A stretch of DNA of 64,000 nucleotides, taken from positions 62,001 to 126,000 of the forward strand of contig NZ_JAAOTJ010000015.1 in NCBI RefSeq assembly GCF_011297335.1. The letters are read 5' to 3'. The stretch comes from Catellatospora methionotrophica. Its GTDB lineage: Bacteria > Actinomycetota > Actinomycetes > Mycobacteriales > Micromonosporaceae. Below are positions 1 through 15,005 of the stretch, piece by piece; the first letter of the stretch is position 1; each line of letters begins with the position of its first letter. A program made the translations under genes and the position numbers. Under the pieces are notes generated by a model that was given only the letters and a program-made list of their open reading frames with translations, did not search any database and was not told the origin of the DNA.

Positions 1-2
1 CC

Positions 3-677
3 CGGTTCCTGGTCTTCGCGCTCACCGACAACCTGACCGTGATCGTCATCGTGACGTTCCTCAGCGGCATGGTGATGTGCTCGGTGAACCCGACCATCGG
101 CGCGGTCATCTACCAGCGGGTACCCGGCCCGATGCTGGCCCGCGCGGGCGGCATCATCATGGCCGTGGCGATGGCCGGCATCCCGCTCGGCGGCGTGCTG
201 GCCGGGGTGGTCGTGGAGCGGCTGGGCTTCGTCAACGGGGTGCTGCTGGCCTCGCTGCTGTACTTCGCGGTCACCCTCACCCCGGTCATCCGGCACCGGG
301 TCTGGCGCGAACTCAACGACGCCGGGGCCCGCGGGCCGACCGCGGACCCGGCGGCGGCGCTGCCCCGGGGGTACGGGCTGGCCGCGACCGCGCTCGGCCC
401 CCGGGTCACGCTGCGCTACGCCGACGGCCAGTGGACGTTGCAGGCCAGCTCAGGGCTGCGCAGGCTGGCCCCGCGGCGGGCGCTGCGCGCCAAGACGGCG
501 GCTCACGCGCTGGCCCAGCTCGAATCCCCGGCGGTACACGAGGCGGTGGGCGAGCTGGCCCGGCGCGAGCACGACGGGGCCGGGCACGAGGCGGCCCGGC
601 TGCGCGCGGAACTGGCCCGGATGGAATCGACGATGAGTCAGATAAGTGTCGGATTGCGGGGCTCTCATCTGCCATGA
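3..677 (+). CDS. MFS transporter, C-terminal part (5' end outside window)
   Basis: This is the end of a major facilitator superfamily permease. The frame is open from base 3, so the gene begins upstream of the window. The first ~100 visible residues form hydrophobic helices ending in a basic loop. They are followed by a ~120-residue cytoplasmic tail with a VTLRYADGQW motif and a charged helix (AARLRAELARME) likely to be a coiled coil. The same tail, with VTLAYANGQW, ends the MFS protein at 15685-17679, so the two are paralogues. Its position at the head of the cluster suggests product export or self-resistance. The fold is clear; the substrate is unknown. Confidence 0.8.
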   Translation, partial: RFLVFALTDNLTVIVIVTFLSGMVMCSVNPTIGAVIYQRVPGPMLARAGGIIMAVAMAGIPLGGVLAGVVVERLGFVNGVLLASLLYFAVTLTPVIRHRVWRELNDAGARGPTADPAAALPRGYGLAATALGPRVTLRYADGQWTLQASSGLRRLAPRRALRAKTAAHALAQLESPAVHEAVGELARREHDGAGHEAARLRAELARMESTMSQISVGLRGSHLP

Positions 678-730
678 AAAGCCCGACTTTTGCCTGGTCC
701 ATTCACGTATCGACAGACTTAGAGTCAGCA

Positions 731-760
731 TTGCAAGTGCATCGATCTGCTTGCTAGTCT
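731..760 (+). promoter_or_regulatory. candidate promoter of the acyl-ligase/ACP/KS operon
   Basis: The 156-nt gap before the ligase gene is much AT-richer than its surroundings. It contains TTGCAA at 731-736 and TAGTCT at 755-760, separated by 18 nt, which resembles a group-2 or housekeeping actinobacterial promoter. TAGAGT at 720-725 is an alternative -10 box without a good -35. No start-site data are available. Confidence 0.35.
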
Positions 761-833
761 CCGGATTCACCGGGTCCGTCGGGGGCGCACAGACCCAGGT
801 TCCAGCACACTTGCGACACCTGGCGGAGCAATC

Positions 834-2246
834 ATGAGCAACACGGGTTGGGCGACCGGCGCACCCCTGACGACGACCCCCGACTGGGTGGACGAACTCC
901 TGCTCGCCGGAGACGACCGGGACGTCTGCCTCCACTTCGGATCCCCCGTGGACCGGGCCGCCCTGCGTCACGCCGTCGCCGACCGTGAGAACACCCTGCG
1001 GCGGCTGGGCCTGGCCCGTGGTGGCGCGATCGCGCTGCGGCTGCCGCCGTCGCTGGCGTACGCGGCGAACCTGCTGGCCGCGTGGCGGATCGGCGCGCAG
1101 GTCGCGCTGCTGGACCACCGGCTGACGGCGTTCGAGACCGACCGCGCCCTGGACCGGCTCCAGCCGCAGGTCGTGGTGAGCTTCACCGGCACGCTGCCGG
1201 GCGGGCTGCGCGCCTTCTACGACGTCACCGACGTCGCGCAGGCCCGCGACGGCCACCCCGCCGCGACCGGCCACGCCGTGATCCAGCTCAGCTCCGGCTC
1301 CACCGGCCCCTCCAAGGTCATCGCCCGGACCGCCGAGCAGTTGGTCGCCGAGATCGACCGGTACACCCGCATGGACGGGGTGCCGTTGCCCGGCGAGCGG
1401 GTGGTGCTGCTGGCCTCCGTGGTACACGTGCTGGGGCTGGTCGGCGGGCTGCTGTACTGCCTGCACGCGGGCGTCGAGCTGGTGCTGCCGGAGCGGCTGA
1501 CCGTCGACGCGATCCTGCGCGCGGTGGCCGCCGGGGACGCGCCGACCACGCTGCTGGGCGTGCCGTTCCACACCGAGCTGCTGGCCTCCAACCCCAACCC
1601 GCCGAAGCTGCCGCAGCTCAAGCGCATGACCACCGGCGGTGAACTGGTACGCGCCGAGGTCGCGCAGCGCTTCACCGACCGCTACGGCATCGTGCTCGGC
1701 AACATGTACGGCATGACCGAGGTCGGCGTCATCGCCACCGACCTGTTCGGCGAGCACCGGCCCTCGCTGATGCCCGCCCCCGGCATCACCGTCCGGGAGT
1801 CCGGCGGCGAGCTGCTGATCGCCACGCCGGAGAGCCCGTACGTCGGTCTGTCCGACCCGACCCGCTGGGTCGACGGCTGGCTGCACACCAAGGACGCGGG
1901 CCGGGTCGACCCGGCGACCGGCCTGATGACGGTGCTCGGGCGGCTGGACTCGCAGGTGTCGGTCGGCGGCCTCAAGGTGGACCTGACCGAGGTGGAGCAC
2001 ACGCTGGCGGCCCTGCCCGGCGTCGAGAGCGCGGTGGTCGTCTACGACGGCGGCATCGAGGCGTACGCCGTGGTGCCCGACGCGGCAGCCGCCGCGACGC
2101 TGGAAGGCGAGCTCGCCGTGCGGCTGGCCCCGTACAAGCGGCCGCGCGTGCTGCACATCGTCGAGCAGCTGCCCCGGACCGCGACGGGCAAGCTCGTGCG
2201 CGACCACGCGGTGCTGCGTACGGCGGACGCGAAGCCGGCCACCTAA
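834..2246 (+). CDS. acyl-AMP ligase / acyl-CoA synthetase family protein (ligase 1)
   Basis: A 470-residue ANL-superfamily adenylating enzyme, shorter than typical acyl-CoA synthetases (~520-600). The P-loop is SSGSTGPSK, the A5-type motif is MYGMTE, and the A10 lysine is in PRTATGKLVRD near the C-terminus. Such enzymes activate a carboxylic acid as its AMP ester and pass it to CoA or to an ACP. Because an ACP gene follows 75 nt downstream, loading of a stand-alone ACP is likely (inference). The ATG at 834 has a GGAG ribosome site at 824-827. It is the first gene of the core operon. Substrate not predictable by eye; an aryl or short acyl acid is plausible from the neighbours. Confidence 0.85.
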   Translation: MSNTGWATGAPLTTTPDWVDELLLAGDDRDVCLHFGSPVDRAALRHAVADRENTLRRLGLARGGAIALRLPPSLAYAANLLAAWRIGAQVALLDHRLTAFETDRALDRLQPQVVVSFTGTLPGGLRAFYDVTDVAQARDGHPAATGHAVIQLSSGSTGPSKVIARTAEQLVAEIDRYTRMDGVPLPGERVVLLASVVHVLGLVGGLLYCLHAGVELVLPERLTVDAILRAVAAGDAPTTLLGVPFHTELLASNPNPPKLPQLKRMTTGGELVRAEVAQRFTDRYGIVLGNMYGMTEVGVIATDLFGEHRPSLMPAPGITVRESGGELLIATPESPYVGLSDPTRWVDGWLHTKDAGRVDPATGLMTVLGRLDSQVSVGGLKVDLTEVEHTLAALPGVESAVVVYDGGIEAYAVVPDAAAAATLEGELAVRLAPYKRPRVLHIVEQLPRTATGKLVRDHAVLRTADAKPAT

Positions 2247-2321
2247 CCGAGCCGCGCCGCCACCCCGACTGCCATCCCGATCCGGGCCCGTTGGGCCGTT
2301 CCACCATGGAAGGAAGTCAAC

Positions 2322-2579
2322 ATGAGCACCGACGTACGCCAGTTCATCATCGACGCGATCGCGGAGATGAACTACCCGATCGACGACGTCGACGCCGACA
2401 CGCCGCTGGGCTCCGCCGGTGTGGACCTGGAGTCGCTGGCCGTCGCCGAGCTCGCGGTGCGGGTTGAGGACACCTACGGCGTGAAGTTCAGCGACGAGGA
2501 GGCCGAGCAGATGGCCGCCATGACGGTGGGCGAGTTCGCCGCCGCGATCCGCGAGCGCGGCAACCTGGCGAGCGCGTGA
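2322..2579 (+). CDS. acyl carrier protein (ACP 1)
   Basis: An 85-residue acidic stand-alone carrier protein. The phosphopantetheine serine lies in GVDLESLAVAEL, where family members usually have DSL; here Ser is preceded by Glu. The rest is the normal four-helix ACP pattern ending in MTVGEFAAAI. The ATG is preceded by a strong GGAAGGA site. It lies between an AMP ligase and a second ACP-like gene, as in type II PKS and aryl-polyene-like systems that use two discrete ACPs. It presumably carries the starter or the growing chain. Confidence 0.9.
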   Translation: MSTDVRQFIIDAIAEMNYPIDDVDADTPLGSAGVDLESLAVAELAVRVEDTYGVKFSDEEAEQMAAMTVGEFAAAIRERGNLASA

Positions 2580-2875
2580 TGGACGCCCCTGTTGCGGCCG
2601 CCGGATCCCTCGGCGTGCCGCGCCAGCGTGCGGGCGAACCGGCGTCGCCGGGTCGCGAAGAGGTCGTCGCGATGCTGGCCAGCTACGGCGAGCGCAGCCC
2701 GGAGCAGGTGCGCGAGCGCATCGACTCGCTGGAGCTGGCGTGGCTGGTGCACCAGGTCGAGCAGCGCCACGGGCGGATGCTCGACCTCGACGACGACGTG
2801 CTCGTGCGGATGACCACGGTGACCGGCGCGGTCGAGGTGCTGGCCGAGGTGCTGGCGGAGCCTGCCGGTGACTGA
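2579..2875 (+). CDS. second acyl carrier protein-like protein (ACP 2)
   Basis: A 98-residue protein with a disordered ~25-residue N-terminus and an ACP-like helical core. The motif IDSLELAWLV contains the expected modifiable serine in a canonical DSL context. ATG at 2579 overlaps the preceding stop (TGATG), so translation is coupled; GTG at 2576 is an alternative start one codon earlier. Its C-terminus overlaps the next gene by 8 nt. The pairing of two divergent ACPs suggests a division of labour between starter loading and extension (inference). Confidence 0.78.
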   Translation: MDAPVAAAGSLGVPRQRAGEPASPGREEVVAMLASYGERSPEQVRERIDSLELAWLVHQVEQRHGRMLDLDDDVLVRMTTVTGAVEVLAEVLAEPAGD

Positions 2876-4010
2876 ACCGCGCCCCGCCGGTGACCGCGCG
2901 CAGGTCGTGGTCACCGGGTTGTCGGCGGTCAGCGCGTACGGCCGGGGCGCGTCCGCGCTGGCGGCCGGTCTGCGGGCGGGACGGCCGGCGTTCGCGCCGG
3001 TCACCCGCTTCGACGTGAGCGCCCGGCGGGTAGGTGTCGGCGCGCTGCTGCCCGGCTCACCGGTGCTGCTCGACGAGCTGCTGTCGACAGTCGACGAGGC
3101 CGCGCACCAGGCCGGGCTTTCCGCTCCGGTCCGGGCGTCGACGCCGCTGCTGCTGGCCGTGCACGGCGAGCCGGACGGAGCCCGCGGGCTGCCCGACCGG
3201 CCGGGGCGCACCGGCGCGTTCACGCTGTCGGTCGCCGAGAAGGCGGGGCTGTCGGACGGCGCACGCACGTACACCAGTGCCTGCGTCGCGGCCAGCACCG
3301 CGGTCGCCGACGCCGCCGCCACGGTGGCCGCCGGTGGCGCCGAACGGGTCATGGTGGCGGCCGGATACCTGGTCGAGCCGGACCAGTTCGCGCTGTTCGA
3401 CGCGGGCCGGGCGCTGGCCGCCGACGGCGCGGTGCGCCCGTTCAGCGCGGGCCGCAAGGGCCTGCTGCTCGGGGACGGGGTGGCCGCGGTGGTGGTGGAG
3501 TCGGCCCGCGCCGCGCAGGCACGAGGCGCGACGCCGCTGGCGCGCCTGCACGGTTGGGGCCGCGCCGGGGACGGTTACCACGTCGTCCAGCCGCGACCCG
3601 ACGGCGCGGGCCTGGCCAGGGCGATCGACGCCGCGCTCGGCCGCGCCGGGCTGACCCCGGAGCAGATCGGCTACGTCAACGCGCACGGGTCCGGCTCCGC
3701 GCAGAGCGATGTCGCCGAGGCGGCCGCGCTGCGCCGTGCCCTCGGTGAGCACGCGTCGGCGGTGCCGATCAGCTCGACCAAGTCGCTGCACGGCCAGGCC
3801 CTGGAAGCCTCTCCCCTGCTGGAGCTGGTCGCCACGGTGCTGTCCCTGCGCGAGGGCTTCCTCCCGGTCAACGCGGGCTACCTCGCCCCCGACCCCGACT
3901 GCCCCCTACACGTACTCACCGCAACGACCGCCGCCCGCCCCGCGTACGCCCTCAGCCTCAACGCCGCCTTCGGCGGCGCGAACACCGCCCTCCTGGTCGG
4001 CGCCCCATGA
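2868..4010 (+). CDS. beta-ketoacyl synthase with Cys-His-Gln active site
   Basis: A 380-residue thiolase-fold ketosynthase related to FabF/FabB. The nucleophile Cys139 is present in TSACVAAS and the first His is His273 in NAHGSGS. The second motif, normally KSxxGH, reads KSLHGQALEAS, so the decarboxylation His is Gln310, with a His two residues earlier. The usual GA after GH is also changed (LEAS). Acylation by Cys should be possible, but normal malonyl decarboxylation is doubtful; an acyltransferase, alternative condensing or partner-subunit role is possible. GTG start overlaps the ACP 2 gene. It ends before a large palindrome. Confidence 0.85.
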   Translation: MTEPRPAGDRAQVVVTGLSAVSAYGRGASALAAGLRAGRPAFAPVTRFDVSARRVGVGALLPGSPVLLDELLSTVDEAAHQAGLSAPVRASTPLLLAVHGEPDGARGLPDRPGRTGAFTLSVAEKAGLSDGARTYTSACVAASTAVADAAATVAAGGAERVMVAAGYLVEPDQFALFDAGRALAADGAVRPFSAGRKGLLLGDGVAAVVVESARAAQARGATPLARLHGWGRAGDGYHVVQPRPDGAGLARAIDAALGRAGLTPEQIGYVNAHGSGSAQSDVAEAAALRRALGEHASAVPISSTKSLHGQALEASPLLELVATVLSLREGFLPVNAGYLAPDPDCPLHVLTATTAARPAYALSLNAAFGGANTALLVGAP

Positions 4011-4024
4011 CCCGCCCCCTCCTG

Positions 4025-4089
4025 CCGCAACTCTTAAAGACTCGCGGCCACCGGGTGCCCTCGAAGGCGCGCCTCTTCAAGAGTTGCGC
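4025..4089. repeat. long palindrome, copy A of a two-copy hairpin family
   Basis: The 15-nt arms 4026-4040 (CGCAACTCTTAAAGA) and 4074-4088 pair with one mismatch around a 33-nt GC-rich centre. C-rich sequence on the left and G-rich sequence on the right extend the pairing. A second copy lies at 14899-14962, with the same outer arms and nearly the same length. Here it separates two same-strand ketosynthase genes, so it may terminate or attenuate transcription inside the operon. Confidence 0.75.
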
Positions 4090-4116
4090 CACGGCGGGGA
4101 CGGGGGGTGGGTCGTG

Positions 4117-4650
4117 ATGGGGCTGGTGGAGGTCGCGCGGGGAGCGTGGCCGGAGGCAGAGGGCGACGTGCAGTTGCCGGTGCTGGCGGGGTTCGTGATG
4201 TCGTCGTTCAGTCCGCTGGTGGCGGAGGCGGCCCGGCGGTGTCTGGGACGGGCGCATGGGGAGCCACCGGTCGCAGCGGGGCGCGGGGCGCGGACTGCGG
4301 TGATCATCTCGTCGGCGACGGGGGACGCGGTCACGGCGGCCGAGGTGGCGCGGGCGGTCGACGCTGGGCGGCGGCTGGGGCCGCTGCTGTTCTTCCAGGC
4401 CGTGCCGAACGCGGTGGCCGGGTACGTGGCGGCGCGGTGGGAGCTGGGCGGACCGGTCGTGTCGCTGAGCCCGGCCGGCGGGGCCGACCCCGTCGCGGAG
4501 TCCCTGGCCGAAGGGCTGGCGATGGCGTCGCTGCTGATCCGCGACGGCGACGCCGACGAGGCCCTGATCGTGGTGGCTGAGCAGGCCCTGACCGACGGCG
4601 AGCACGACCGGGCGCTGGCCGTGCTCGTACGCAACAGCGAAGTGAACTGA
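4117..4650 (+). CDS. ketosynthase-like N-terminal-domain protein (chain-length-factor-like)
   Basis: A 177-residue protein resembling the short Ketoacyl-synt_2 family (PF13723) found beside ketosynthases in aryl-polyene-type clusters. Visible features are an N-terminal hydrophobic segment with SSFSPLVAEAA, VIISSATGDAVTAAEVARAV, and the family-like stretch PNAVAGYVAARWELGGPVVSLSP split by the motif NAVAGY. No nucleophile Cys and no catalytic His motif are present, so it cannot be an active condensing enzyme by itself. It probably pairs with one of the flanking ketosynthases, as a chain-length factor does (inference). ATG 4117 is preceded by a G-rich site; GTG 4114 is an alternative. Confidence 0.7.
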   Translation: MGLVEVARGAWPEAEGDVQLPVLAGFVMSSFSPLVAEAARRCLGRAHGEPPVAAGRGARTAVIISSATGDAVTAAEVARAVDAGRRLGPLLFFQAVPNAVAGYVAARWELGGPVVSLSPAGGADPVAESLAEGLAMASLLIRDGDADEALIVVAEQALTDGEHDRALAVLVRNSEVN

Positions 4651-4666
4651 CCGAAGGAGTGCAGCG

Positions 4667-6283
4667 ATGCGAACCAACCTGCGGGCGATCCTCGCCGCCG
4701 ACGCCGACCTCGGCGCCGGCAATGTCATCACCCGGCTGCTGGCGCACGGGGCCGACCCGGCCGGTCCGGGGCTGACCTTCGACGTGGACGTCGACGGCCA
4801 CCCCGCGTGGGAGCCGCTGACCCTGGGCCAGCTCGACGAGCGGGTCGCGGCGCGCGCCGCGTGGCTGCACGAGCGCGGCATCGGCTGGCGCGACCCGGTC
4901 GCGGTGTACGCCAGCACGTCGGCCGACGTGGTCCTGTCGTTCCTCGCGCTCAACCGGCTCGGGGCGATTCCCGCGCTGCTCAACGGCAACCTCAGCGGCG
5001 AGATCGCGGCCGAGTACATCCGGCGGCTGCGGGCCGAGGCGGTGCTGACCGACGCGAAGCACGCCGCGCTGCTGGAGGGCCGCGACTTCGGCTCGCGCCT
5101 GCTCGGCGACATCACCGAGATGGGCTCGGCGGACCCGGCCGACGCTCCCCCGCCGTACCGGCACCACCCGGACGATCCGATCTCGATCACGCACTCCTCC
5201 GGCACCACCGGCCTGCCCAAGGCGATCGTGCACTCGCACACCACGCTGTTCGCGGCCACCCGCCGGATCCGGCTGTCAGGGCCGCGCGCGCAGGGCACCG
5301 AGCGGGTCGTCTGCGCGCTGCCGTCGGCGCACACCGCGGGCATCCTGTCCATCAACCAGGCCCTGTGCAACCGCGCCGAGCTGGTCTTCCTGTCCTCGCA
5401 GCGGGGCGACTACGTGCTCGACGCGATCGAGCGGTTCAAACCGACCGGTGTCTTCGGCTTCGCGGTGACCTGGGCCGACATGGCCCGCCATGATTTGGGC
5501 ACGCGCGACCTGGACTCGGTGGCGATCTGGTTCAACACCGGCGACTGCGCGCACGAGGCGCACATCCGGCCGCTGGTCGCCGTCGGCAGCCACAACACCG
5601 TCACCCGCGAGGGCGTGACCCGCGTCAAGGGCTCGATGTTCATCGACGGCATCGGCTCGACCGAGATGGGCCACTCCGCGTTCCACATCACCCACCGGGT
5701 CGACACCGAGCGCTACGACCGCTGCATCGGCCGCCCGCACGTGTTCGCCGACGTGGCGGTGCTCGACGACGCCGGGGAGCCGGTCGGCGCGGGCGTGGTC
5801 GGCCACCTGGGGCTGAAGTCGCCGACGGTGAAGCTGATGTACTGGAACGACTCGGTCACCGAGTTCCGCACCCGGCAGTCGGGCTACTACCTGACCGGTG
5901 ACCTCGTGTACCACGACGAGGACGGCTACTACTACCACGTGGACCGGGCGGTGGACTCGGTCGTGCTGGACGGCGGGCAGTGGCTGCACACGTCGCTGAC
6001 CGAGGAGAAGATCCTGGCGAGCTGCCCCGACGTGCTCGACTGCACGGTCGTCGCGGTGCGCGAGGGCGGCGGGGTCGTCACCGACGTGCTGCTGGTGCTC
6101 AAGGCCGGGGCCGACGTCGCGGCGGACCGCCGGGACGCGGTCGTGGCGGCGCTGGGCGAGCACGCCGCGCCGACGCTGCGCGACGTCAACGCGGTACATG
6201 ACGACGACATCCCCACCGGGGCCACCGGCAAGGTGCGCAAGCTGGTGCTGCGCGAGCGCGCGCTGTCCGGTGCTGCGCGATGA
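4667..6283 (+). CDS. acyl-AMP ligase / acyl-CoA synthetase (ligase 2)
   Basis: A 538-residue ANL enzyme of full length. The P-loop is HSSGTTGLPKAIVHSH, the A5 motif is GSTEMG, A7 is YLTGDL, and the catalytic A10 lysine is in TGATGKVRK. Sequence between motifs differs from ligase 1 and from the 17.7 and 27.8 kb pair, so it is a separate subfamily with probably a different acid substrate. A strong GAAGGAG site lies 7 nt before ATG 4667. Its end overlaps the next ketosynthase by ATGA, so the two are translationally coupled and probably act in sequence. Confidence 0.88.
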   Translation: MRTNLRAILAADADLGAGNVITRLLAHGADPAGPGLTFDVDVDGHPAWEPLTLGQLDERVAARAAWLHERGIGWRDPVAVYASTSADVVLSFLALNRLGAIPALLNGNLSGEIAAEYIRRLRAEAVLTDAKHAALLEGRDFGSRLLGDITEMGSADPADAPPPYRHHPDDPISITHSSGTTGLPKAIVHSHTTLFAATRRIRLSGPRAQGTERVVCALPSAHTAGILSINQALCNRAELVFLSSQRGDYVLDAIERFKPTGVFGFAVTWADMARHDLGTRDLDSVAIWFNTGDCAHEAHIRPLVAVGSHNTVTREGVTRVKGSMFIDGIGSTEMGHSAFHITHRVDTERYDRCIGRPHVFADVAVLDDAGEPVGAGVVGHLGLKSPTVKLMYWNDSVTEFRTRQSGYYLTGDLVYHDEDGYYYHVDRAVDSVVLDGGQWLHTSLTEEKILASCPDVLDCTVVAVREGGGVVTDVLLVLKAGADVAADRRDAVVAALGEHAAPTLRDVNAVHDDDIPTGATGKVRKLVLRERALSGAAR

Positions 6284-7548
6284 CCGCCAACCGTCCTGAC
6301 ATCGTCGTCACGGGTATCGGCCTGGTCACCCCGGTCGGCAACGACCTCGACGACATCTTCGACGCCCTGTGCGGCGCGCGGTCCGGGATCGTGACCACCC
6401 CCGAGGGGCACCCCGCGCAGGGGTCCCTGGAGGTGATGGGCAAGGGCCCGGACATCGAGGCGGCCAGCGTGCTGCCCGGCCCGGAGGCGCGCACGCTGGA
6501 CCGGTACATCGTGCACGCGCTGGTCGCCGCCGAGCGGGCGATGGCCGACGCCGACCTGGTGGTGGGCCGCGACGTGGACCCGTATCGGGCGGCCACGGTG
6601 GTGTCCGGCACGGGTGGGCTGGCCACGCTGGAGGCGCAGGTGATCACGCGTACCCAGAAGGGCCGGCTCGGGGTGAGCCCGTACCTGCTGCCGGGGATGC
6701 TGCCGAACATGGCGACCGCGCGTATCGCCATCAAGTACGACCTGCGCGGCTACAGCTCCTCCATCGGCACGGCGTGCGCGGCGGGCGCGCAGTCGATCGC
6801 CGAGGGCATCCGCATCCTGCGCTACGGCGAGGCGGATGTGGTGCTGGTCGGCTGCGGTGAGGCACCGCTGTTCCCGACCCTGGCCGACACCTTCGGCAAC
6901 ACTCGCGCGTTGGCCAAGGGCTGGGCCGACAACCCGTCGGCGGCCAGCCGCCCGTTCGATCTGCGCCGCAACGGGCTGGTGCTGGCCGAGGGCGCGGGCG
7001 TGCTGGTGCTGGAGCGGGCCGCGGACGCGGACGCGCGGGGCCGCCCGGCGTACGCGACGCTGCACGGCTGGGGCGCGACCACCGACGCCCACCACCCGAC
7101 CACGCCCCGGCCGGACGGCTCGGGTCAGGCCGAGTGCATGCGCCGGGCGCTGGCCGACGCGGGGCTGTCCCCCGCCGACATCGGCTACCTCAACGCCCAC
7201 GCCACCAGCACGAAGCTGGGCGACGTGGCGGAGTCGCTGGCGGTCAACACGGTGTTCGCCGCTGCCATGCCGCCGGTCAGCTCGAACAAGGGCGTCACCG
7301 GGCACATGCTCGGCGCGTCGGGGGTGATCGAGGCCGCGGCGACGATCATGGCGCTCGGGCGCGGGCTGCTGCCGCCGACGGTCAACCTCGAGGACCCGGA
7401 TCCCGCGTGCGATCTAGACCATATTCGTGGCAAGGCTCGGCAAAGTCCCATCGATTTTGCACTGTCCAATTCCTTCGGATTCGGCGGACATAATGTGAGC
7501 CTTGTCCTGGGTCGACCCACCACGTCACTCAGCCGTTTTGCTGAGTGA
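6280..7548 (+). CDS. beta-ketoacyl-ACP synthase, FabF type with intact active site
   Basis: A 422-residue ketosynthase. Cys166 (TACAAG), His307 (NAHATST), Lys337 and His342 (NKGVTGHMLGASG) form the complete Cys-His-His set, and the C-terminus has the GFGGHN loop. It should therefore catalyse decarboxylative Claisen condensation between an ACP-bound acyl group and malonyl-ACP. It could work alone, or as the active partner of the short KS-like protein at 4117 or the Cys-His-Gln KS at 2868. It is the last gene of the core operon; base composition becomes AT-rich in its final 150 nt and in the gap beyond. Confidence 0.92.
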   Translation: MTANRPDIVVTGIGLVTPVGNDLDDIFDALCGARSGIVTTPEGHPAQGSLEVMGKGPDIEAASVLPGPEARTLDRYIVHALVAAERAMADADLVVGRDVDPYRAATVVSGTGGLATLEAQVITRTQKGRLGVSPYLLPGMLPNMATARIAIKYDLRGYSSSIGTACAAGAQSIAEGIRILRYGEADVVLVGCGEAPLFPTLADTFGNTRALAKGWADNPSAASRPFDLRRNGLVLAEGAGVLVLERAADADARGRPAYATLHGWGATTDAHHPTTPRPDGSGQAECMRRALADAGLSPADIGYLNAHATSTKLGDVAESLAVNTVFAAAMPPVSSNKGVTGHMLGASGVIEAAATIMALGRGLLPPTVNLEDPDPACDLDHIRGKARQSPIDFALSNSFGFGGHNVSLVLGRPTTSLSRFAE

Positions 7549-7564
7549 GGAGTCACCGAATCGT

Positions 7565-7643
7565 TTGCAAGAGACAACATACTGTCGCAATTAAATATTT
7601 GCGTAGCTAGGTATTGAGGGACATCAGCGACACCCGCTAGCGT
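7565..7643 (+). promoter_or_regulatory. AT-rich control region and candidate promoter of hmaS-like gene
   Basis: The 337-nt gap 7549-7885 holds no gene. It contains TTGCAA (7565-7570), an imperfect 18-bp palindrome at 7586-7603 with arms CGCAA and TTGCG, and a promoter-like pair TTGAGG (7614-7619) and TAGCGT (7638-7643) spaced 18 nt. The spacing matches that of the candidate promoter at 731-760. The palindrome next to the promoter is a plausible operator. Confidence 0.4.
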
Positions 7644-7660
7644 GACAGTCAGACGGCCCT

Positions 7661-7683
7661 CGCCGGAGCGCTCAGCTCCGGCG
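7661..7683 (+). terminator. short hairpin in the leader of the hmaS-like gene
   Basis: A perfect 9-bp stem (CGCCGGAGC / GCTCCGGCG) with a 5-nt loop. It lies downstream of the candidate promoter and about 200 nt before the gene. It has no U tract. It could end read-through from the ketosynthase operon or attenuate the downstream transcript. Confidence 0.4.
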
Positions 7684-7885
7684 GGTCGGCCGTGAACGAC
7701 GGACGTCACAGGGGCACGACGGCCAATCGGAGCGTGGTGAGTTCGTTCGGCGTGCGCCGCGAAAGCGGCAGCGCCAGGGACGAGTCACGAGCCGTGGACC
7801 CGTTCCGCGCCCACCACCTGGCGGGGAGCGAGTCCTAGCAGTCAGTGCAAAACAGGACATCGTACTGCCAAGGGGTAGGTAGCAA

Positions 7886-9001
7886 ATGAACATTCTCGGC
7901 ATCGACCACCTGGAGTTCTACGTCGGTGACGCCCGCCAGACGGCCTACTATCTGTGCACGGCGTTCGGGTTCCGGATCTGCGGACAGGGCGGCCCGCAGA
8001 CGGGCCTGGCCGGGCAGCGCTCGCTGCTGCTGCAGCACGGGGACATCCGGATCGTGCTCACCTCCGGGCTGGTCGCCGACCACCCGGCCACGCTCTACGT
8101 CGGCCGCCACGGCGACGGCGTGGCCGTCATCGCCTTCGAGACCGACGACGCCGCCGGCCTGTACGACTTCGTCGTCGGGCGCGGGGCGAACGCGCTGTCC
8201 GCGCCGACCGTGCACGAGAACGCCGCGGGCCGGGTCGTGGAGGCGAGCGTCTCCGGCTTCGGTGACGTCACCCACCGCCTCGTCGAGCGGCATGGCTCCC
8301 GCTGGGAGCTGCTGCCCGGCACGATCGAGATGACGCTGCCGGAGCAGTCATACGCCGACGATCTGCTGCAGGTCATCGACCACCTGGCGATCTGCGTACC
8401 GGCCGGGGAGATCGCCGCCACCTCGCGCTACTACCAGGACGTGTTCGGTTTCGCCGAGATCTTCGAGGAGTACATCGAGGTCGGCGGGCAGGGCATGGAC
8501 TCCAAGGTGGTGCAGAGCCCGTCGCGGCAGGTGACGTTCACGCTGATCGAGCCGGACCTGTCGCGCCGCCCCGGCCAGATCGACGACTTCCTGTCCTGGC
8601 ACGCGGGCGCGGGCGTGCAGCACATCGCGTTCCGCACCAACGACATCGTCACCGCGGTGCGCACCTTCGCCGAGCGGGGCGTCGGTTTCCTCAGCACGCC
8701 GGGGACCTATTTCGACGCGCTGGAGCAGCGCCTGGGCAGCGTAGACCTGCCCATCGCGGAGTTGCGCCAGCTCGGGGTGCTGGTCGACACCGACCACTAC
8801 GGGGAGCTGTACCAGATCTTCACCCAGTCCATGCACGTGCGCCGGACGCTGTTCCTGGAGCTGATCGAGCGGCACGGTGCGCTGACCTTCGGCAGCAGCA
8901 ACATCAAGGCGCTGTACGAGGCCAAGGAGCGTGAGCTGGGGGCACCCGCCGAAGCGGTGCCCGCGCCGGACGCCCGCCCCGCCGGCCTGGCCGCCGCCTG
9001 A
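7886..9001 (+). CDS. hmaS: 4-hydroxymandelate synthase-like dioxygenase (HmaS/HPPD family)
   Basis: A 371-residue protein with two VOC (glyoxalase-fold) halves. Ligands for Fe(II) are His166 (IDHLAIC), His246 (GVQHIAF) and Glu325 (FLELIERHG). The family uses 4-hydroxyphenylpyruvate: HPPD makes homogentisate, HmaS makes 4-hydroxymandelate. The C-terminal helix reads FGSSNIKALYEA, as in glycopeptide HmaS as I recall it, where HPPDs have GNFKALFEA; the segment VGGQGMDSKVVQS is also HmaS-like. I therefore favour 4-hydroxymandelate as product. The strong site AGGGGTAGG precedes ATG 7886. It heads a unit with the PhyH-type dioxygenase. The usual 4-hydroxymandelate oxidase and HpgT of hydroxyphenylglycine pathways are not in the window. 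Confidence 0.8.
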   Translation: MNILGIDHLEFYVGDARQTAYYLCTAFGFRICGQGGPQTGLAGQRSLLLQHGDIRIVLTSGLVADHPATLYVGRHGDGVAVIAFETDDAAGLYDFVVGRGANALSAPTVHENAAGRVVEASVSGFGDVTHRLVERHGSRWELLPGTIEMTLPEQSYADDLLQVIDHLAICVPAGEIAATSRYYQDVFGFAEIFEEYIEVGGQGMDSKVVQSPSRQVTFTLIEPDLSRRPGQIDDFLSWHAGAGVQHIAFRTNDIVTAVRTFAERGVGFLSTPGTYFDALEQRLGSVDLPIAELRQLGVLVDTDHYGELYQIFTQSMHVRRTLFLELIERHGALTFGSSNIKALYEAKERELGAPAEAVPAPDARPAGLAAA

Positions 9002-9058
9002 GACCGGGACACCCCCGTGCACCATCCCCCACCCCCACCCCTGGCAAGGAGCCTTCCC

Positions 9059-9970
9059 ATGGCTGAGCAGTTCTACCTGACCGACGAGGAGCGGGAGTTG
9101 CTCCCCTCCGACGAGGACGTCGCGTTCTACGCCGAGCACGGCTGGTACCTGACGAAGAAGCTGTTCACCGACGCCGAGGTCGACGAGCTGGTCGAGGCCA
9201 GCGAGCGCTTCTACGCCGGGGAGCGCAGCCGCTCCCTGCCGCTGCGACCGCGCCGCCTGGCGTACTGGGAGCCGCAGCACGGCGACGTGCAGCGGCACAA
9301 CGACTACGTGCACTACGAGCATGACGGGCTGGCCAAGCTGCTGCGCAAGCCGCTGATCGGCGCGGTCGCGGCCCGGCTCGCCCAGGCCGACGAGATCCGG
9401 ATCTTCCAGTCGACCCTGATCTTCAAGCCGCCGCGCCCGGAGGAGCCGACCAACGTCGTGCCGTGGCACTTCGACCGGCACTACTGGGCGTCGTCGACCT
9501 CGGAGCGCATGCTCACCGCGTTCATCCCCTTCCACGACTGTGACGAGGAGATGGGCACCATCACGATGGTCGACGGCAGCCACCGGTGGCAGGAGGTCGG
9601 CAACGACGACTCCACCGCCAAGCACTTCGCCGAGCGCGACAAGGAGGACCTGGAGGTCCTGCTGGCGCGCAACGCGGCGTTCAACGGCACCCAGGTCACC
9701 AAGGTCCCGATGATCATCCCCAAGGGCCACATGAGCTTCCACCACTGCCGCACGTACCACGGCAGCGCCGGCAACCGCAGCGACCGTCCCCGCCGCGCGG
9801 TGTCCCTGCACCTGCAGGACGGCGAGAACCGGTACCGCCCGTACGCCCTCAGCGACGGCTCCGTCGTCGGTTACAACCACGACGAGCTGGTGCGCCGTAC
9901 GCCCGACGGCCACCCCGACTATGCCGACCCGGATTACTGCCCGGTGCTCTGGACCTCGGCTCAGCACTGA
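9059..9970 (+). CDS. phytanoyl-CoA dioxygenase (PhyH) family Fe(II)/2-oxoglutarate oxygenase
   Basis: A 303-residue non-haem iron oxygenase. The facial triad is His137 and Asp139 (WHFDRHYW) plus His234 (TYHGSAGN), with Arg240 or a nearby arginine (PRRAVSLHL) for 2-oxoglutarate binding. PhyH-family enzymes hydroxylate, halogenate or epoxidise small molecules, often in biosynthetic clusters. ATG 9059 has an AAGGAG site 8 nt upstream and is preferred over an in-frame GTG 42 nt earlier, which would add a proline-rich leader. It lies 57 nt after the hmaS-like gene, so it may tailor the mandelate-derived unit or a carrier-bound acyl chain. Confidence 0.88.
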   Translation: MAEQFYLTDEERELLPSDEDVAFYAEHGWYLTKKLFTDAEVDELVEASERFYAGERSRSLPLRPRRLAYWEPQHGDVQRHNDYVHYEHDGLAKLLRKPLIGAVAARLAQADEIRIFQSTLIFKPPRPEEPTNVVPWHFDRHYWASSTSERMLTAFIPFHDCDEEMGTITMVDGSHRWQEVGNDDSTAKHFAERDKEDLEVLLARNAAFNGTQVTKVPMIIPKGHMSFHHCRTYHGSAGNRSDRPRRAVSLHLQDGENRYRPYALSDGSVVGYNHDELVRRTPDGHPDYADPDYCPVLWTSAQH

Positions 9971-9980
9971 AATCTCTTCG

Positions 9981-10022
9981 GCCGCAGCTCACCACCGGCG
10001 TCGCCCGCTGGTGAGCTGCGGC
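9981..10022. terminator. strong hairpin between dioxygenase and methyltransferase genes
   Basis: The perfect 14-bp stem GCCGCAGCTCACCA / TGGTGAGCTGCGGC encloses a 14-nt loop and begins 11 nt after the dioxygenase stop. It lacks a clear U tract, as is common in actinomycetes. It probably separates the 7886-9970 unit from the 10052-13001 operon, or attenuates read-through, since only 29 nt remain before the next start. Confidence 0.65.
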
Positions 10023-10051
10023 TTCGGCACACCCTCGGCTCGGAGAACAAC

Positions 10052-11044
10052 GTGAACGAAGCACTGGCCCGGCGCAAACTCCTCGGCATCCTCTCCGGCA
10101 GCTGGGTCGCCCAGGGGGTGTACGCGCTGGTCCGGCTCGGCGTGCCGGACCAGCTGGCGGACGGCCCCAAGCACGTCGGCGACCTGGCCCACCAGTGCGG
10201 TGCGGACCCCCACGCGCTGGGCCGCCTGCTGCGGGCGCTGTCCCTGATGGGCCTGTTCACCCGCCCGGCCCCGGACACGTACGGGCTGACCCCCACCACG
10301 GAGCTGCTGCGCGCCGACGTGCCCGGTTCGGTCCGCCTCAACGCGCTGATGCAGGGTGACGAGGTGTTCCGCTCGTTCGCCGAGATCATGCACACGCTGC
10401 GCACCGGCCGCCCGGCCTTCGAGGCGGTGTACGGCCGCCCGTTCTACGACTATCTCGGCGACAACCCCGACGCCGCGGCCGTGTTCAACGAGTCCATGGG
10501 CGACCAGCGCCCGCCGGAGGCGCTGTCCGGCTGCGACCTGAGCGAGGCCCGGATCGTGGTCGACGTCGGCGGCGGCAACGGCAGCCTGCTCGCCGAACTG
10601 CTGGAGCGGTATCCGCACCTGCAGGGCGTGCTGCTGGAGCTGCCCGACGCGGCCGCTGCCGCCCGTACGAAGCTGGCCGAGGCGGGCCTGGCCGGGCGCT
10701 CGGCGTGCGTGGAGGGCAGCTTCTTCGACGGCGTGCCCGACGGCGGCGACGTCTACACGCTGGCCCGGGTGCTGCACAACTGGAACGACGACAACGCGAT
10801 CGCGATCCTGCGCCGGGTGCACGCGGTGCTGCCGCCGCACGGGCGCGTCATCGTGCTGGAGGAGTTCCTGCCCGAGGAGGCCGATCCGGCGGGCCGCTCC
10901 GCGGCGGGGCTGGTCGACCTGCTCATGCTGGTCACCCTGGAGGGCCGCGACCGCACCGAGAACGAGTACCGGGAACTGCTGGGCAAGGCCGGGTTCGAGA
11001 TCGTCGACGCCCGCGCGGGAGTGCTGGAGGCACGGGTCGCATGA
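10052..11044 (+). CDS. SAM-dependent O-methyltransferase (acetylserotonin/CarB-type)
   Basis: A 330-residue class I methyltransferase with an N-terminal winged-helix dimerisation domain (residues ~1-90) and a C-terminal Rossmann domain. The SAM loop is DVGGGNGSL at 171-179. HNWNDD and LEEFLPE are typical of the Methyltransf_2 family, which methylates phenolic hydroxyls of aromatic natural products. This fits a 4-hydroxyphenyl substrate from the hmaS-like pathway (inference). GTG 10052 is preceded by GGAG at 10042. The gene ends in an ATGA overlap with the E1 alpha gene, so methylation and 2-oxoacid processing genes are coupled. Confidence 0.9.
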   Translation: MNEALARRKLLGILSGSWVAQGVYALVRLGVPDQLADGPKHVGDLAHQCGADPHALGRLLRALSLMGLFTRPAPDTYGLTPTTELLRADVPGSVRLNALMQGDEVFRSFAEIMHTLRTGRPAFEAVYGRPFYDYLGDNPDAAAVFNESMGDQRPPEALSGCDLSEARIVVDVGGGNGSLLAELLERYPHLQGVLLELPDAAAAARTKLAEAGLAGRSACVEGSFFDGVPDGGDVYTLARVLHNWNDDNAIAILRRVHAVLPPHGRVIVLEEFLPEEADPAGRSAAGLVDLLMLVTLEGRDRTENEYRELLGKAGFEIVDARAGVLEARVA

Positions 11045-12027
11045 GCGAGGACGCGGGGCTGTACCGGACGATGCGGCTGATCCGCAGGTTCGAGGAGCGG
11101 TCGATCGAGCTGGTCCACGCCGGGGAGATCGTCGGCGGGATCCACCCGTACATCGGGCAGGAGGCCATCGCCGCGGGCGTGTGCGCGGCGCTGCGCGAGG
11201 ACGACATCATCACCAGCACCCACCGCGGACACGGGCACGTGCTGGCCAAGGGTGCCGACCCGGTGCGCATGCTCGCCGAGCTGACCGGCCGCGCGACCGG
11301 GCTCAACCAGGGCCGGGGCGGCTCGATGCACGCCGCGGACTTCAGCAAGGGCATCTACGGCGCGAACGGGATCGTCGGCGCGGGCGGGGCCATCGCCACC
11401 GGCGCGGCCTGGGCCGCCGTCAAGGAGGGCAGCGACCGGGTCGCGGTCAGCTTCTTCGGCGACGGCGCGGTCAGCCAGGGCGTGCTACTGGAGACGTTCA
11501 ACCTGGCCGCGCTGTGGCGGCTGCCGGTGCTGTTCGTCTGCGAGAACAACGGGTACGCCACCACGCTCACCGTGGCACAGTCCGTCGCCGGCTCGATCAC
11601 CGGCCGCGCCGAGGCGTTCGGCATCCCCGCGGTCAGCGTGGACGGGGCCGACGCGACGGCGGTGCTGGACGCGGCCCGCGACGCCGTGGCCCGTGGCCGT
11701 GCCGGGGGCGGGCCGAGCTTCATCGAGGCCACCGCGTACCGCTTCGACGCCCACCACACCTGGGAGCACAAGGCCAGGGTGCGTTACCGCAGCGATGAGG
11801 AGGTGGCGGCCGGCCGGTCCCGCGACCCGCTCGACGTGCACGGCTCCCGCCTGGACGCCGACGTCCGCGCCGGGATCGACGCGGAGGTCGAGGCGCTGAT
11901 CACCGAGGCGGTCGCGTACGCGCTGGACAGCCCGCATCCCGACCCGGCCGGGGCACTCGACCACCTCTACGCCACCGGCCTGCGCGGCCGCGACGGCATC
12001 GGACTCCTCGACACGGCGGTGCGCTGA
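11041..12027 (+). CDS. 2-oxoacid (pyruvate-type) dehydrogenase E1, alpha subunit
   Basis: A 328-residue thiamine-diphosphate enzyme subunit. The ThDP/Mg motif runs from GDGAVSQG (Asp141) to Asn169-Asn170 (CENNGYA). The loop HTWEHKARVRYR follows the expected alpha-subunit phosphorylation-loop position. It pairs with the beta subunit encoded next. E1 decarboxylates a 2-oxo acid and transfers the acyl group to a lipoyl or other acceptor. No E2 or E3 gene lies nearby. Similar orphan E1 pairs (PglB/PglC) occur in the pristinamycin phenylglycine pathway, where an aromatic 2-oxo acid is processed, so a cluster-specific arylglyoxylate or branched-chain substrate is likely. Confidence 0.88.
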   Translation: MSEDAGLYRTMRLIRRFEERSIELVHAGEIVGGIHPYIGQEAIAAGVCAALREDDIITSTHRGHGHVLAKGADPVRMLAELTGRATGLNQGRGGSMHAADFSKGIYGANGIVGAGGAIATGAAWAAVKEGSDRVAVSFFGDGAVSQGVLLETFNLAALWRLPVLFVCENNGYATTLTVAQSVAGSITGRAEAFGIPAVSVDGADATAVLDAARDAVARGRAGGGPSFIEATAYRFDAHHTWEHKARVRYRSDEEVAAGRSRDPLDVHGSRLDADVRAGIDAEVEALITEAVAYALDSPHPDPAGALDHLYATGLRGRDGIGLLDTAVR

Positions 12028-13001
12028 TGGCACGACTGTCCTACCTCAAGGCCCTGCAGCGGGCGCTGTCCGACGAGATGGGCCGCGACGAGGCCGTCTG
12101 CGTGCTCGGCGAGGACATCGGCGTGGGCGTCAACAACGTCACCACCGGCCTGCTGGCCAAGTACGGCGCGCAGCGCGTCGTCGACACCCCGCTGTCCGAG
12201 CAGGCCTTCACCAGTTTCGCGACCGGCGCGGCGCTGGCCGGGCTGCGGCCGGTCATCGAGTTCCAGATCCCGTCGCTGCTGTTCCTGGTCTTCGAGCAGA
12301 TCGCCAACCAGGCGCACAAGTTCTCGCTGATGACCGGTGGGCAGGCGAGGGTGCCGGTGACCTACTTCGTGCCGGGTTCGGGGTCGCGCAGCGGCTGGGC
12401 GGGCCAGCACTCCGACCACCCGTACGGGCTGTTCGCGCACGTGGGCGTGAAGACGGTGGTGCCGGCTACGCCGGAGGACGCGTACGGGCTGTTCCTGACC
12501 GCGATCCGCGACGACGACCCGGTGGTGCTGTTCGCCCCCGCCGGGGCGCTCGGGGTGCGGGCCGACGTCGACATGGACGCGCTCGGGCCGGTGCCGCTGG
12601 GCGTCGGGCGGGTGCACCGGGAGGGCACCGACGTGACCGTGGTCGCGGTCGGGCACCTGGTGCAGGCGGCCCTGGCCGTCGCGGAGCAGCTCGCCGACCA
12701 GATCTCGGTGGAGGTCTTCGACCCCCGCACGCTCCACCCGTTCGACTGGGACGGGCTGGCGGCCTCGGTCGCCAAGACCGGGCGGCTCGTGGTGATCGAC
12801 GACTCGAACCGGATGTGCGGCATCGCCGGAGAGATCCTGGCGACCGCCGCCGAGCAGATGCGGCTGACCGTGCCGCCCAAGCGGGTGACCCGGCCCGACG
12901 GCGCGGTGCTCCCGTTCGCCCGCGATCTCGACCTGGCCGTGCAGCCGCAGCAGGACCAGCTGCTCACGGCCGTGCAGGAGGTCTACAAGTCCAGCCGCTG
13001 A
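12027..13001 (+). CDS. 2-oxoacid (pyruvate-type) dehydrogenase E1, beta subunit
   Basis: A 324-residue transketolase-like beta subunit (N-terminal pyrimidine-binding domain, C-terminal transketolase domain). Motifs include VLGEDIGVG, DTPLSEQAF and a C-terminal VVIDDSNRMCGIAGE. The start overlaps the alpha-subunit stop by one base (TGATG), giving coupled translation of the heterotetramer. It is the last gene of the operon before a strong hairpin. Standard housekeeping complexes would be followed by a lipoyl E2; here transcription stops, supporting a specialised role in the cluster. Confidence 0.88.
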   Translation: MARLSYLKALQRALSDEMGRDEAVCVLGEDIGVGVNNVTTGLLAKYGAQRVVDTPLSEQAFTSFATGAALAGLRPVIEFQIPSLLFLVFEQIANQAHKFSLMTGGQARVPVTYFVPGSGSRSGWAGQHSDHPYGLFAHVGVKTVVPATPEDAYGLFLTAIRDDDPVVLFAPAGALGVRADVDMDALGPVPLGVGRVHREGTDVTVVAVGHLVQAALAVAEQLADQISVEVFDPRTLHPFDWDGLAASVAKTGRLVVIDDSNRMCGIAGEILATAAEQMRLTVPPKRVTRPDGAVLPFARDLDLAVQPQQDQLLTAVQEVYKSSR

Positions 13002-14850: not shown

Positions 14851-14898
14851 TCCCCCCCGCCGACCGGCCGAGCCGCGCGGCGCGGCGCCCCACCCCTG

Positions 14899-14962: not shown

Positions 14963-15005
14963 CGGAGGGGCGGGGCGGGGCGGGCGGCCGGGGGTGGAGG
15001 GCTGG

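What the first reader, a model, noticed from the sequence alone, without database searches (positions are those of the whole stretch)
3..13001. Ligase-ACP-KS cluster combined with an HmaS-like enzyme and orphan E1 subunits: no known cluster matched
The core order is ligase, ACP, ACP, KS with Gln, short KS-like, ligase, KS. It recalls aryl-polyene and type II PKS loci, but ketoreductase, dehydratase and thioesterase genes are absent. Instead there is a 4-hydroxymandelate synthase-like enzyme, a PhyH oxygenase, an O-methyltransferase and an E1 alpha/beta pair. I cannot match this combination to a named cluster. Inference: an aryl or 2-oxoacid-derived starter, O-methylated and short-chain extended.
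Basis: partly seen in the sequence, partly recalled or inferred. Interest (0 to 1): 0.75.

Follow-up and report, generated by a model that had tools for sequence, protein, structure and literature searches.

The report
Rewired aryl-polyketide cluster with diazotase-like enzyme
This is a real, widely shared but apparently unstudied actinobacterial gene cluster that looks like a rewired version of the clusters that build aryl acids and then join two nitrogen atoms, here combined with genes for making the unusual amino acid 4-hydroxyphenylglycine.

Summary
The genes are as described, but the cluster does have a known relative. LIG1-ACP1-ACP2-KS1-short KS-LIG2 is colinear with A1-A6 of the avenalumate/p-coumarate (ava/cma) clusters: acyl-ACP ligase, two ACPs, ketosynthase, chain-length factor, ATP-dependent diazotase. 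The second "ligase" models best onto the diazotase CmaA6, then Tri17, and nests among diazotase-like enzymes. KS1 groups with ketosynthases from aryl-acid clusters, not with AmcF-type controls. HmaS is not isolated: 4-hydroxymandelate-oxidase-like and aminotransferase genes lie 13-15 kb upstream, a plausible full gene set for 4-hydroxyphenylglycine. 68 of the 80 loci studied, in 12 genera, carry HmaS or PhyH; 66 of these 68 hold exactly one of three amide-ligase types within the stretch held. Homologues of the aminohydroxybenzoate and nitrite genes that cma has were not found in the 81 stretches searched. Best reading: an ava/cma-type core retooled around 4-hydroxyphenylglycine, with a possible N-N-forming step. 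Product, starter and nitrite source are unknown. New variant of a known kind.

The parts
1..677 (+). MFS transporter, 3' part (gene starts at -915)
   Evidence: MFS_1; in the six Catellatospora loci L038-L043
834..2246 (+). LIG1: aryl acid:ACP ligase, AvaA1/CmaA1 position
   Evidence: AMP-binding; nearest PDB benzoate-CoA ligase; Val at the column where four NRPS-type adenylation domains have Asp
2322..2579 (+). ACP1: extender-type ACP (A2 position)
   Evidence: PP-binding; W..H motif in 0 of 62 ACP1 rows
2576..2875 (+). ACP2: starter-type ACP (A3 position)
   Evidence: DSLELAWLVH; W..H in 60 of 60 ACP2 rows, the spacing of Trp38/His41 of CmaA3; no Pfam match
2868..4010 (+). KS1: ketosynthase of the aryl-starter clade (A4 position)
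   Evidence: NF058662 AmcF 152 bits, below cut-off 325
4117..4650 (+). short KS-like partner (A5 position; AmcG-like)
   Evidence: NF058659 AmcG 41 bits, below cut-off 80; Ketoacyl-synt_2
4667..6283 (+). LIG2: diazotase-clade ANL enzyme (A6 position)
   Evidence: NF058622 AvaA6 500 bits, cut-off 975; Foldseek best CmaA6 8ztz, TMq 0.91, 41% id; tree
6280..7548 (+). KS2: FabF-type ketosynthase with intact Cys-His-His
7886..9001 (+). HmaS: 4-hydroxymandelate synthase (probable)
   Evidence: best PDB 2r5v, 316 bits, against 236 for HPPD 1t47, the reverse of the genome's own HPPD; lacks the PxN of that HPPD; also passes the 4HPPD model, 342 bits, cut-off 277
9059..9970 (+). PhyH-family Fe/2-oxoglutarate oxygenase
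10052..11044 (+). O-methyltransferase
   Evidence: Methyltransf_2; in 7 of 68 core loci
11041..12027 (+). E1 alpha, thiamine-diphosphate enzyme
   Evidence: E1_dh; motif conserved
12027..13001 (+). E1 beta
   Evidence: Transket_pyr and Transketolase_C; conserved Glu, 67 of 67
15006..15692 (-). GDSL lipase SGNH1 (syntenic neighbour)
   Evidence: Pfam; 57% to L127; 45 of 68 core loci
15685..17679 (-). MFS transporter MFS2 (syntenic neighbour)
   Evidence: MFS_1; an MFS gene lies at the same place in L126/L127, though MFS2 itself found no match there at E 1e-15
17679..19253 (-). LIG3, AMP-binding ligase (syntenic neighbour)
   Evidence: 50-52% to L126/L127
19582..20877 (+). GDSL lipase SGNH2 (syntenic neighbour)
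   Evidence: Pfam; 40-43% to L126/L127
20879..22105 (+). cytochrome P450 (syntenic neighbour, next to Est-Hmo-HpgT in L126/L127)
   Evidence: Pfam; 43-45% to L126/L127

Best explanation
The locus is a biosynthetic gene cluster of an unnamed Catellatospora-like genome, with a core colinear with ava/cma A1-A6. Shown here by sequence, structure model and trees: gene order, enzyme clades, conserved catalytic residues, recurrence, and neighbouring HmaS, Hmo and aminotransferase genes. Inferred by analogy to characterised ava/cma enzymes: LIG1 adenylates an aryl (or aryl-2-oxo) acid and loads it onto ACP2; ACP1 carries malonyl; KS1 with its short partner adds one C2 unit, perhaps more with KS2. Inferred: HmaS, Hmo and HpgT turn 4-hydroxyphenylpyruvate into 4-hydroxyphenylglycine, which brings the amine that ava/cma takes from aminohydroxybenzoate. 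An ATP-grasp ligase (a condensation domain in other variants) makes an amide. LIG2 uses ATP to activate nitrite as an adenylate and forms an N-N bond on an amine. PhyH, O-methyltransferase and the thiamine-dependent E1 pair tailor or join pieces; the E1 reaction is a guess. Rough likelihoods: ava/cma-like core about 0.85; 4-hydroxyphenylglycine made and used about 0.65; N-N chemistry by LIG2 about 0.5.
For: Order LIG1-ACP1-ACP2-KS1-short KS-LIG2 in the window and in 44 of 80 loci (phosphopantetheinyl transferase and unmatched calls between them ignored); 8 more have LIG1 to short KS with LIG2 further on. This equals A1-A6 of ava/cma (Table 1). W..H starter-ACP motif in 60 of 60 ACP2 and 0 of 62 ACP1 rows, at the spacing of CmaA3 Trp38/His41. 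Foldseek best hits of LIG2 are CmaA6 (TMq 0.80-0.91, 40-43% id) and Tri17 (34-35%), then acyl-CoA ligases at 22-23%. 29 positions are shared by LIG2 (at least 22 of 23) and diazotase-like rows (at least 7 of 8) but differ or are gapped in both LIG1 and LIG3. LIG2 (23 rows, 100/100) nests among 8 diazotase-like rows; 4 of these 8 (L118, L121, L122, L123) sit beside genes read as CreE/CreD, confirmed by search for the genomes of L118 and L121. HmaS: 2r5v 316 bits, HPPD 1t47 236, against 584 for the own HPPD to 1t47. Hmo's best single-copy PDB match is 4-hydroxymandelate oxidase, 323 bits. Hmo and HpgT homologues lie near the block in 4 of 4 genomes checked. One amide-ligase type each in 66 of 68 loci, never two in one stretch; the Micromonospora/Salinispora one has a glutathione-synthetase-like fold.
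Against: LIG2 scores 500 bits where the AvaA6 model's cut-off is 975; its clade has a long stem of 1.26, and 5 positions invariant in LIG2 differ consistently from the diazotase-like rows, so its reaction may differ. The two diazotase-like rows nearest LIG2 in the tree (L119, L120) showed no CreE/CreD in 20 kb. CreE and CreD homologues were not found in the window's genome at E 1e-8 nor in any of 81 stretches at E 1e-10. No aminobenzoate synthase query matched there either. LIG1 has Val where four NRPS-type adenylation domains have Asp (9 of 9 LIG1 rows), which speaks against loading 4-hydroxyphenylglycine itself. The HmaS protein also passes NCBIfam's 4HPPD model (342 bits, cut-off 277), though below the own HPPD (429). 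Hmo is nearly as close to glycolate oxidases (317 bits). Twelve LIG2 loci have no HmaS or PhyH; Hmo was called in 12 and HpgT in 16 of 68 loci within about 10 kb, so their link outside the four genomes checked is unproven. No AvaA4 or AvaA5 sequence was at hand for the tree.
Confidence: 0.5

Rival explanations
1. LIG2 descends from diazotases but now makes an ordinary acyl adenylate, or an ester or amide bond. The cluster makes an aryl-beta-keto amide without any N-N bond.
For: Below the AvaA6 equivalog cut-off; long stem branch; 5 positions unlike diazotase-like rows; no CreE or CreD match in the window's genome.
Against: 29 diazotase-clade positions kept; nearest solved structures are two N-N-forming enzymes; 72 of 134 ava-type clusters also lack the nitrite genes (paper text).
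Confidence: 0.35
2. HmaS, Hmo and the E1 pair convert 4-hydroxyphenylpyruvate to 4-hydroxybenzoyl (through 4-hydroxyphenylglyoxylate and thiamine-dependent decarboxylation) as starter for LIG1. The aminotransferase serves another step.
For: E1 alpha in 65 and E1 beta in 64 of 68 core loci; LIG1 resembles benzoate ligases and lacks the Asp of NRPS-type adenylation domains.
Against: E1 alpha is pyruvate-dehydrogenase-like, though below the model cut-offs; E1 also occurs with LIG2 in loci without HmaS (L060, L079); no E2 among the 26 genes from -7.7 to 22.1 kb.
Confidence: 0.2
3. The ketosynthase pair is a cispentacin/coronafacate-type KS-CYF that builds a five-membered carbocycle from 2-oxoglutarate.
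For: AmcF and AmcG models match KS1 and the short KS, the latter as its only NCBIfam hit at E 1e-6.
Against: Both below cut-off (152 of 325, 41 of 80 bits), and FabF scores KS1 higher (213 bits); two AmcF-type controls lie on the other side of a 100/99 branch; no AmcE-like dehydratase among the 26 genes.
Confidence: 0.05

Closest known systems
cma (p-coumaric acid, Kutzneria albida) and ava (avenalumic acid) clusters
   Same: Order ligase, ACP, ACP, KS, short partner, diazotase-type enzyme; starter-ACP W..H motif; aryl-starter ketosynthase clade
   Different: No match to 3,4-AHBA synthases or nitrite genes and no ketoreductase; adds HmaS-Hmo-HpgT, KS2, PhyH, E1 pair, amide ligase; product unknown
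CmaA6/AvaA6 and Tri17, ATP- and nitrite-dependent N-N-forming ANL enzymes
   Same: Fold, 34-43% identity to the solved CmaA6 and Tri17, 29 clade-specific positions
   Different: Own 100/100 clade on a long stem; about half the AvaA6 model's cut-off score; no nitrite genes found nearby
Cispentacin AmcF-AmcG (KS-CYF)
   Same: Ketosynthase with a short KS-like partner; ACP and adenylating ligase
   Different: Different ketosynthase clade; below model cut-offs; no AmcE-like dehydratase
4-hydroxyphenylglycine pathway of glycopeptide antibiotics (HmaS, Hmo, HpgT; recalled)
   Same: All three gene types, with active-site residues conserved
   Different: No multimodular peptide synthetase beside it; aminotransferase only a general family match

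Membership tests
ava/cma-type cluster | Gene order A1-A2-A3-A4-A5-A6 | tested here: met
   Window and 44 of 80 loci colinear; order from Table 1 of PMC10777205
ava/cma-type cluster | Starter ACP with Trp/His motif, extender ACP without | tested here: met
   60 of 60 against 0 of 62; motif described
ava/cma-type cluster | 3,4-AHBA synthase genes (H, I) | tested here: not met
   Queries read as GriH- and GriI-like (from L033) match 0 of 81 stretches
ava/cma-type cluster | Nitrite genes E and D | tested here: not met
   0 of 81 stretches; none in G000. The paper says 72 of 134 such clusters lack them
ava/cma-type cluster | Ketoreductase (A8) or CmaG | tested here: not met
   No short-chain reductase among 26 genes; the one FMN enzyme is Hmo-like, and CmaG itself was not at hand
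ava/cma-type cluster | Denitrification enzyme A7 | not tested
   No A7 sequence was at hand
ATP-dependent diazotase (AvaA6 equivalog) | Score above the NF058622 cut-off of 975 bits | tested here: not met
   500 bits; 0 of 394 genomes pass the cut-off
ATP-dependent diazotase clade (broad) | Groups with diazotase-like enzymes apart from acyl ligases | tested here: met
   100/99 branch of 31 rows (long outgroup branches flagged); Foldseek
ATP-dependent diazotase clade (broad) | Nitrite- and ATP-dependent N-N formation | not testable with these tools
   Needs an enzyme assay
Cispentacin AmcF/AmcG | Scores above cut-off and AmcF clade | tested here: not met
   152 of 325 and 41 of 80 bits; tree
4-hydroxymandelate synthase | Closer to HmaS than to HPPD; no HPPD PxN motif; Fe ligands present | tested here: met
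   with the own HPPD as control. That 2r5v is HmaS is recalled; hits 2 and 3 are named HPPD in the PDB, and the 4HPPD model is passed (342 bits, cut-off 277)
4-hydroxyphenylglycine pathway | HmaS, Hmo and HpgT together | tested here: met
   in 4 of 4 genomes checked. HpgT is only a general aminotransferase match and Hmo is nearly as close to glycolate oxidase
Pyruvate/branched-chain dehydrogenase complex | E2 and E3 genes beside E1 | tested here: not met
   None among the 26 genes from -7.7 to 22.1 kb; the rest of the genome was not searched

The most novel reading that the evidence does not exclude
LIG2 founds a large unrecognised clade of nitrite-using N-N-forming enzymes acting on an amine derived from 4-hydroxyphenylglycine rather than on an aminobenzoate ring. 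With the C2-extended beta-keto chain this could give an alpha-diazo ketone or, by ring closure, an aryl-4-hydroxypyrazole, then made into an amide by interchangeable ATP-grasp or condensation enzymes. It would be a common but unseen metabolite of Micromonosporaceae.
Probability: 0.2. Interest if true: 0.85.

Novelty: new variant of a known kind. Interest (0 to 1): 0.6.

Why it matters
If right, a widespread cluster family (an HmaS orthologue in 98 of 300 Micromonosporaceae genomes) carries a clade of candidate N-N-forming enzymes with no local nitrite pathway and an amino-acid-derived amine. That makes testable whether this enzyme type reaches beyond aromatic amines and where such cells get nitrite. 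The ATP-grasp and condensation-domain partners, never seen together in one stretch, look like repeated replacement of one step by unrelated enzymes.

Tried and rejected
Cispentacin-type carbocycle: suggested by the AmcF/AmcG models, rejected after cut-offs and the tree. LIG2 as a plain acyl-CoA ligase: weakened. LIG2 as a strict AvaA6 orthologue: rejected by the cut-off. 4-hydroxyphenylglycine as LIG1's own substrate: disfavoured. HmaS as the housekeeping HPPD: rejected, since the genome has a separate HPPD.

Literature: ten searches. Those for hydroxymandelate synthase with ketosynthase or with Micromonospora gave one paper, seen only as a listing. Diazotase with Micromonospora gave only the N-N review. 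Hydroxyphenylglycine with diazo and type II polyketide gave none. Catellatospora with gene cluster gave 17 papers, of which I saw 10 titles and abstract starts and read none. The library holds open-licence papers only, so a published description elsewhere is possible. Read: passages of PMC11705231, passages and section 9 of PMC10698177, parts 1 and 2 of 4 of PMC10777205. A guess that L027/L028 are azoxymycin-like is recalled and untested.
Full report
What is there. The window is bases 62001-126000 of contig C7 of an unnamed 8.39 Mb genome. The second ligase is 97% identical to one of Catellatospora vulcania, so the host is Catellatospora-like. KS1 has Gln310 at a position that is His in most of its relatives. 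Across 58 KS1 rows two states occur: His273 with Gln310 (17 rows each) and Asn273 with His310 (40 rows each), one row gapped. His308 is kept in 57 of 58 and Cys139 in 56 of 58 (the pairing of the two states was read from equal column counts).

Beyond the stated limits. The 20 kb left of the window (L010) holds, from -7.7 kb: an FMN-dependent dehydrogenase whose best single-copy solved relative is 4-hydroxymandelate oxidase (323 bits; a fused lactate oxidase scores 330 by two hits of 166 each, and glycolate oxidase 317), a class I/II aminotransferase, a regulator, an unassigned protein, an esterase, an ATP-grasp/amino-acid-ligase protein and the start of the MFS gene. In two same-family genomes (G095, G196, probably Micromonospora) homologues of Hmo, HpgT, esterase, a P450 and a GDSL lipase lie about 10 kb beyond the block, next to MFS and LIG3 genes. 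The window's GDSL lipases, LIG3 and P450 at 15.0-22.1 kb match them at 40-57% (the SGNH1 match in L126 covers only 51 residues, at 67%). MFS2 found no match in G095 or G196 in that search. I therefore take -7.7 to 22.1 kb as the syntenic cluster; that all of it serves one pathway is inference.

Recurrence. The short KS hit 15 of 394 class genomes at E 1e-5, and LIG2 hit 15 of 394 at E 1e-60 or better, four of them at 59% identity or more (G000, G095, G196, G249). In a GTDB scan 150 stretches encode LIG2 relatives; only the best 80 were kept and studied. These were picked by LIG2, so LIG2 is in 80 of 80 by construction. 68 of 80 have HmaS or PhyH, in 12 genera by record title (Catellatospora, Longispora, Micromonospora, Salinispora, Streptomyces, Allorhizocola, Dactylosporangium, Kitasatospora, Catelliglobosispora, Phytohabitans, Saccharothrix, Actinospica). 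Among the 68: LIG1 60, ACP1 59, ACP2 60, KS1 56, short KS 58, KS2 66, HmaS 66, PhyH 67, DUF3050 52, E1 alpha 65, E1 beta 64, OMT 7, Hmo 12, HpgT 16, esterase 19. Genes were called by my own simple script, and loci are cut at about 10 kb or at contig ends, so low counts are lower bounds. In Dactylosporangium and Kitasatospora loci the block is fused with a condensation domain, a KAS III and an extra carrier protein, and in several of these with Hmo and HpgT. An HmaS orthologue at E 1e-110 or better occurs in 98 of 300 Micromonosporaceae genomes; this counts HmaS, not the whole cluster.

The known relative. Table 1 of PMC10777205 lists cma/ava genes in the order A1 acyl-ACP ligase, A2 ACP, A3 ACP, A4 ketosynthase, A5 chain-length factor, A6 ATP-dependent diazotase. 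The window has this order, as do 44 of 80 loci; 8 more have the first five with LIG2 further on (phosphopantetheinyl transferase and unmatched calls in between, and strand, were not counted). The same paper says A3 carries the starter and A2 the malonyl unit, and that Trp38 and His41 of CmaA3 are conserved in A3 but not A2. Our ACP2 has W..H in 60 of 60 rows and ACP1 in 0 of 62. Saccharothrix loci without called KS1 still pair LIG1 with ACP2, as expected of a loading pair. In an ML tree of 32 rows KS1 falls with six ketosynthases, four of them from loci with aminobenzoate-type genes (100/99); two control AmcF-type proteins, found with the AmcG model over its cut-off in 2 of 394 genomes, fall elsewhere. 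The 'aminobenzoate', 'AHBA' and 'MIO' labels of those loci are my reading of translations, apart from AurF in L027. No AvaA4 sequence was available for the tree.

LIG2. NCBIfam's best match is the AvaA6 diazotase model (500 bits, cut-off 975). The AlphaFold2 model (pLDDT 84.9) matches CmaA6 best, then Tri17, then feruloyl-CoA synthetase at 22-23% identity. Twenty-nine positions are shared by LIG2 and eight diazotase-like proteins and differ, or are gapped, in both LIG1 and LIG3; five positions invariant in LIG2 differ from the diazotase-like rows. The tree puts 23 LIG2 rows in one clade (100/100) nested among diazotase-like rows; the deep acyl-ligase branches are long and flagged as unsafe. 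Four of the eight comparison loci (L118, L121, L122, L123) carry neighbours that I read as the nitrite genes CreE and CreD; the genomes of L118 and L121 were confirmed by search with the L121 proteins. In the other four, among them the two nearest to LIG2, I noticed none in 20 kb. Against N-N chemistry: neither gene matched in the window's genome at E 1e-8 (G095 has only a CreD-like and G249 only CreE-like matches), and none is in the 81 stretches searched. The paper notes that 72 of 134 ava-type clusters lack them, with nitrite possibly from elsewhere.

The 4-hydroxyphenylglycine genes. HmaS matches 2r5v first (316 bits), then 3zgj and 7yvv (293 and 291, named HPPD in the PDB), and HPPD 1t47 only at 236; that 2r5v is a hydroxymandelate synthase is recalled. 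The genome's own HPPD gives the reverse: 1t47 584 bits, 7yvv 191, 3zgj 181. HmaS keeps the Fe ligands in 67 of 67 rows and lacks the Pro and Asn (PxN) that the own HPPD has. It still passes the 4HPPD model (342 bits, cut-off 277; own HPPD 429). With Hmo and HpgT this makes the amino acid plausible; the aminotransferase assignment rests on position and general family. LIG1 has Val in 9 of 9 rows where four NRPS-type adenylation domains have Asp; that this Asp binds the amino group is recalled knowledge. So LIG1 probably does not load the amino acid itself.

Amide step. Each of 66 of 68 core loci has exactly one of three ligase types within the stretch held: a 450-residue protein (41), an ATP-grasp protein like the window's (8), or a condensation domain (17). 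The two exceptions are contigs under 7 kb. The 450-residue protein has no Pfam match; its model (pLDDT 84.9) has glutathione synthetases as its best Foldseek matches (TMq about 0.55-0.66), i.e. an ATP-grasp ligase fold. This points to an amide bond in most or all variants; partners are unknown.

Unsettled. What LIG1 loads, whether LIG2 makes an N-N bond, where nitrite would come from, what E1 and KS2 do, and the product. Searches of open-licence papers found no description of this cluster, which does not exclude one elsewhere.

Noticed in passing
window 4015-4099 and 14880-14981: The same palindromic element (GCAACTCTTNAAGA, inverted) lies between KS1 and the short KS and after the isochorismatase gene; 5 matches with up to 2 mismatches against 0.07 expected by chance.
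   Followed up: partly
window 2868-4010 and KS1 relatives: Two groups of KS1 lack different catalytic His positions (His273+Gln310, 17 rows; Asn273+His310, 40 rows) while a neighbouring His308 is kept in 57 of 58.
   Followed up: partly
L030, L031 and many Micromonospora/Salinispora loci: The block lies beside a second KS-KS pair with cupin, ACP-cyclase and biotin-carboxylase-like genes that look like a spore-pigment cluster (label recalled).
   Followed up: no
L124 (G000:C1:1085798-1087414): The window's genome has a second diazotase-like gene beside genes that read like an adenylation domain, a carrier protein and an amine oxidase.
   Followed up: no
L120: A diazotase-like gene beside genes that read like nitrate reductase and a nitrate/nitrite transporter, a possible other nitrite source (read by eye).
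   Followed up: no
L158 (G000:C6:182001-202000): A second HmaS-like gene (48% identity) beside genes that read like an adenylation-domain protein and P450s.
   Followed up: no
window 9970-10052: The DUF3050 gene found between PhyH and the methyltransferase in five Catellatospora loci (L038-L041, L043) is missing here and in L042.
   Followed up: partly
L060, L079, L088 group: Twelve LIG2 loci have no HmaS or PhyH; 11 of the 12 have a glycosyltransferase and 9 a KAS III.
   Followed up: no
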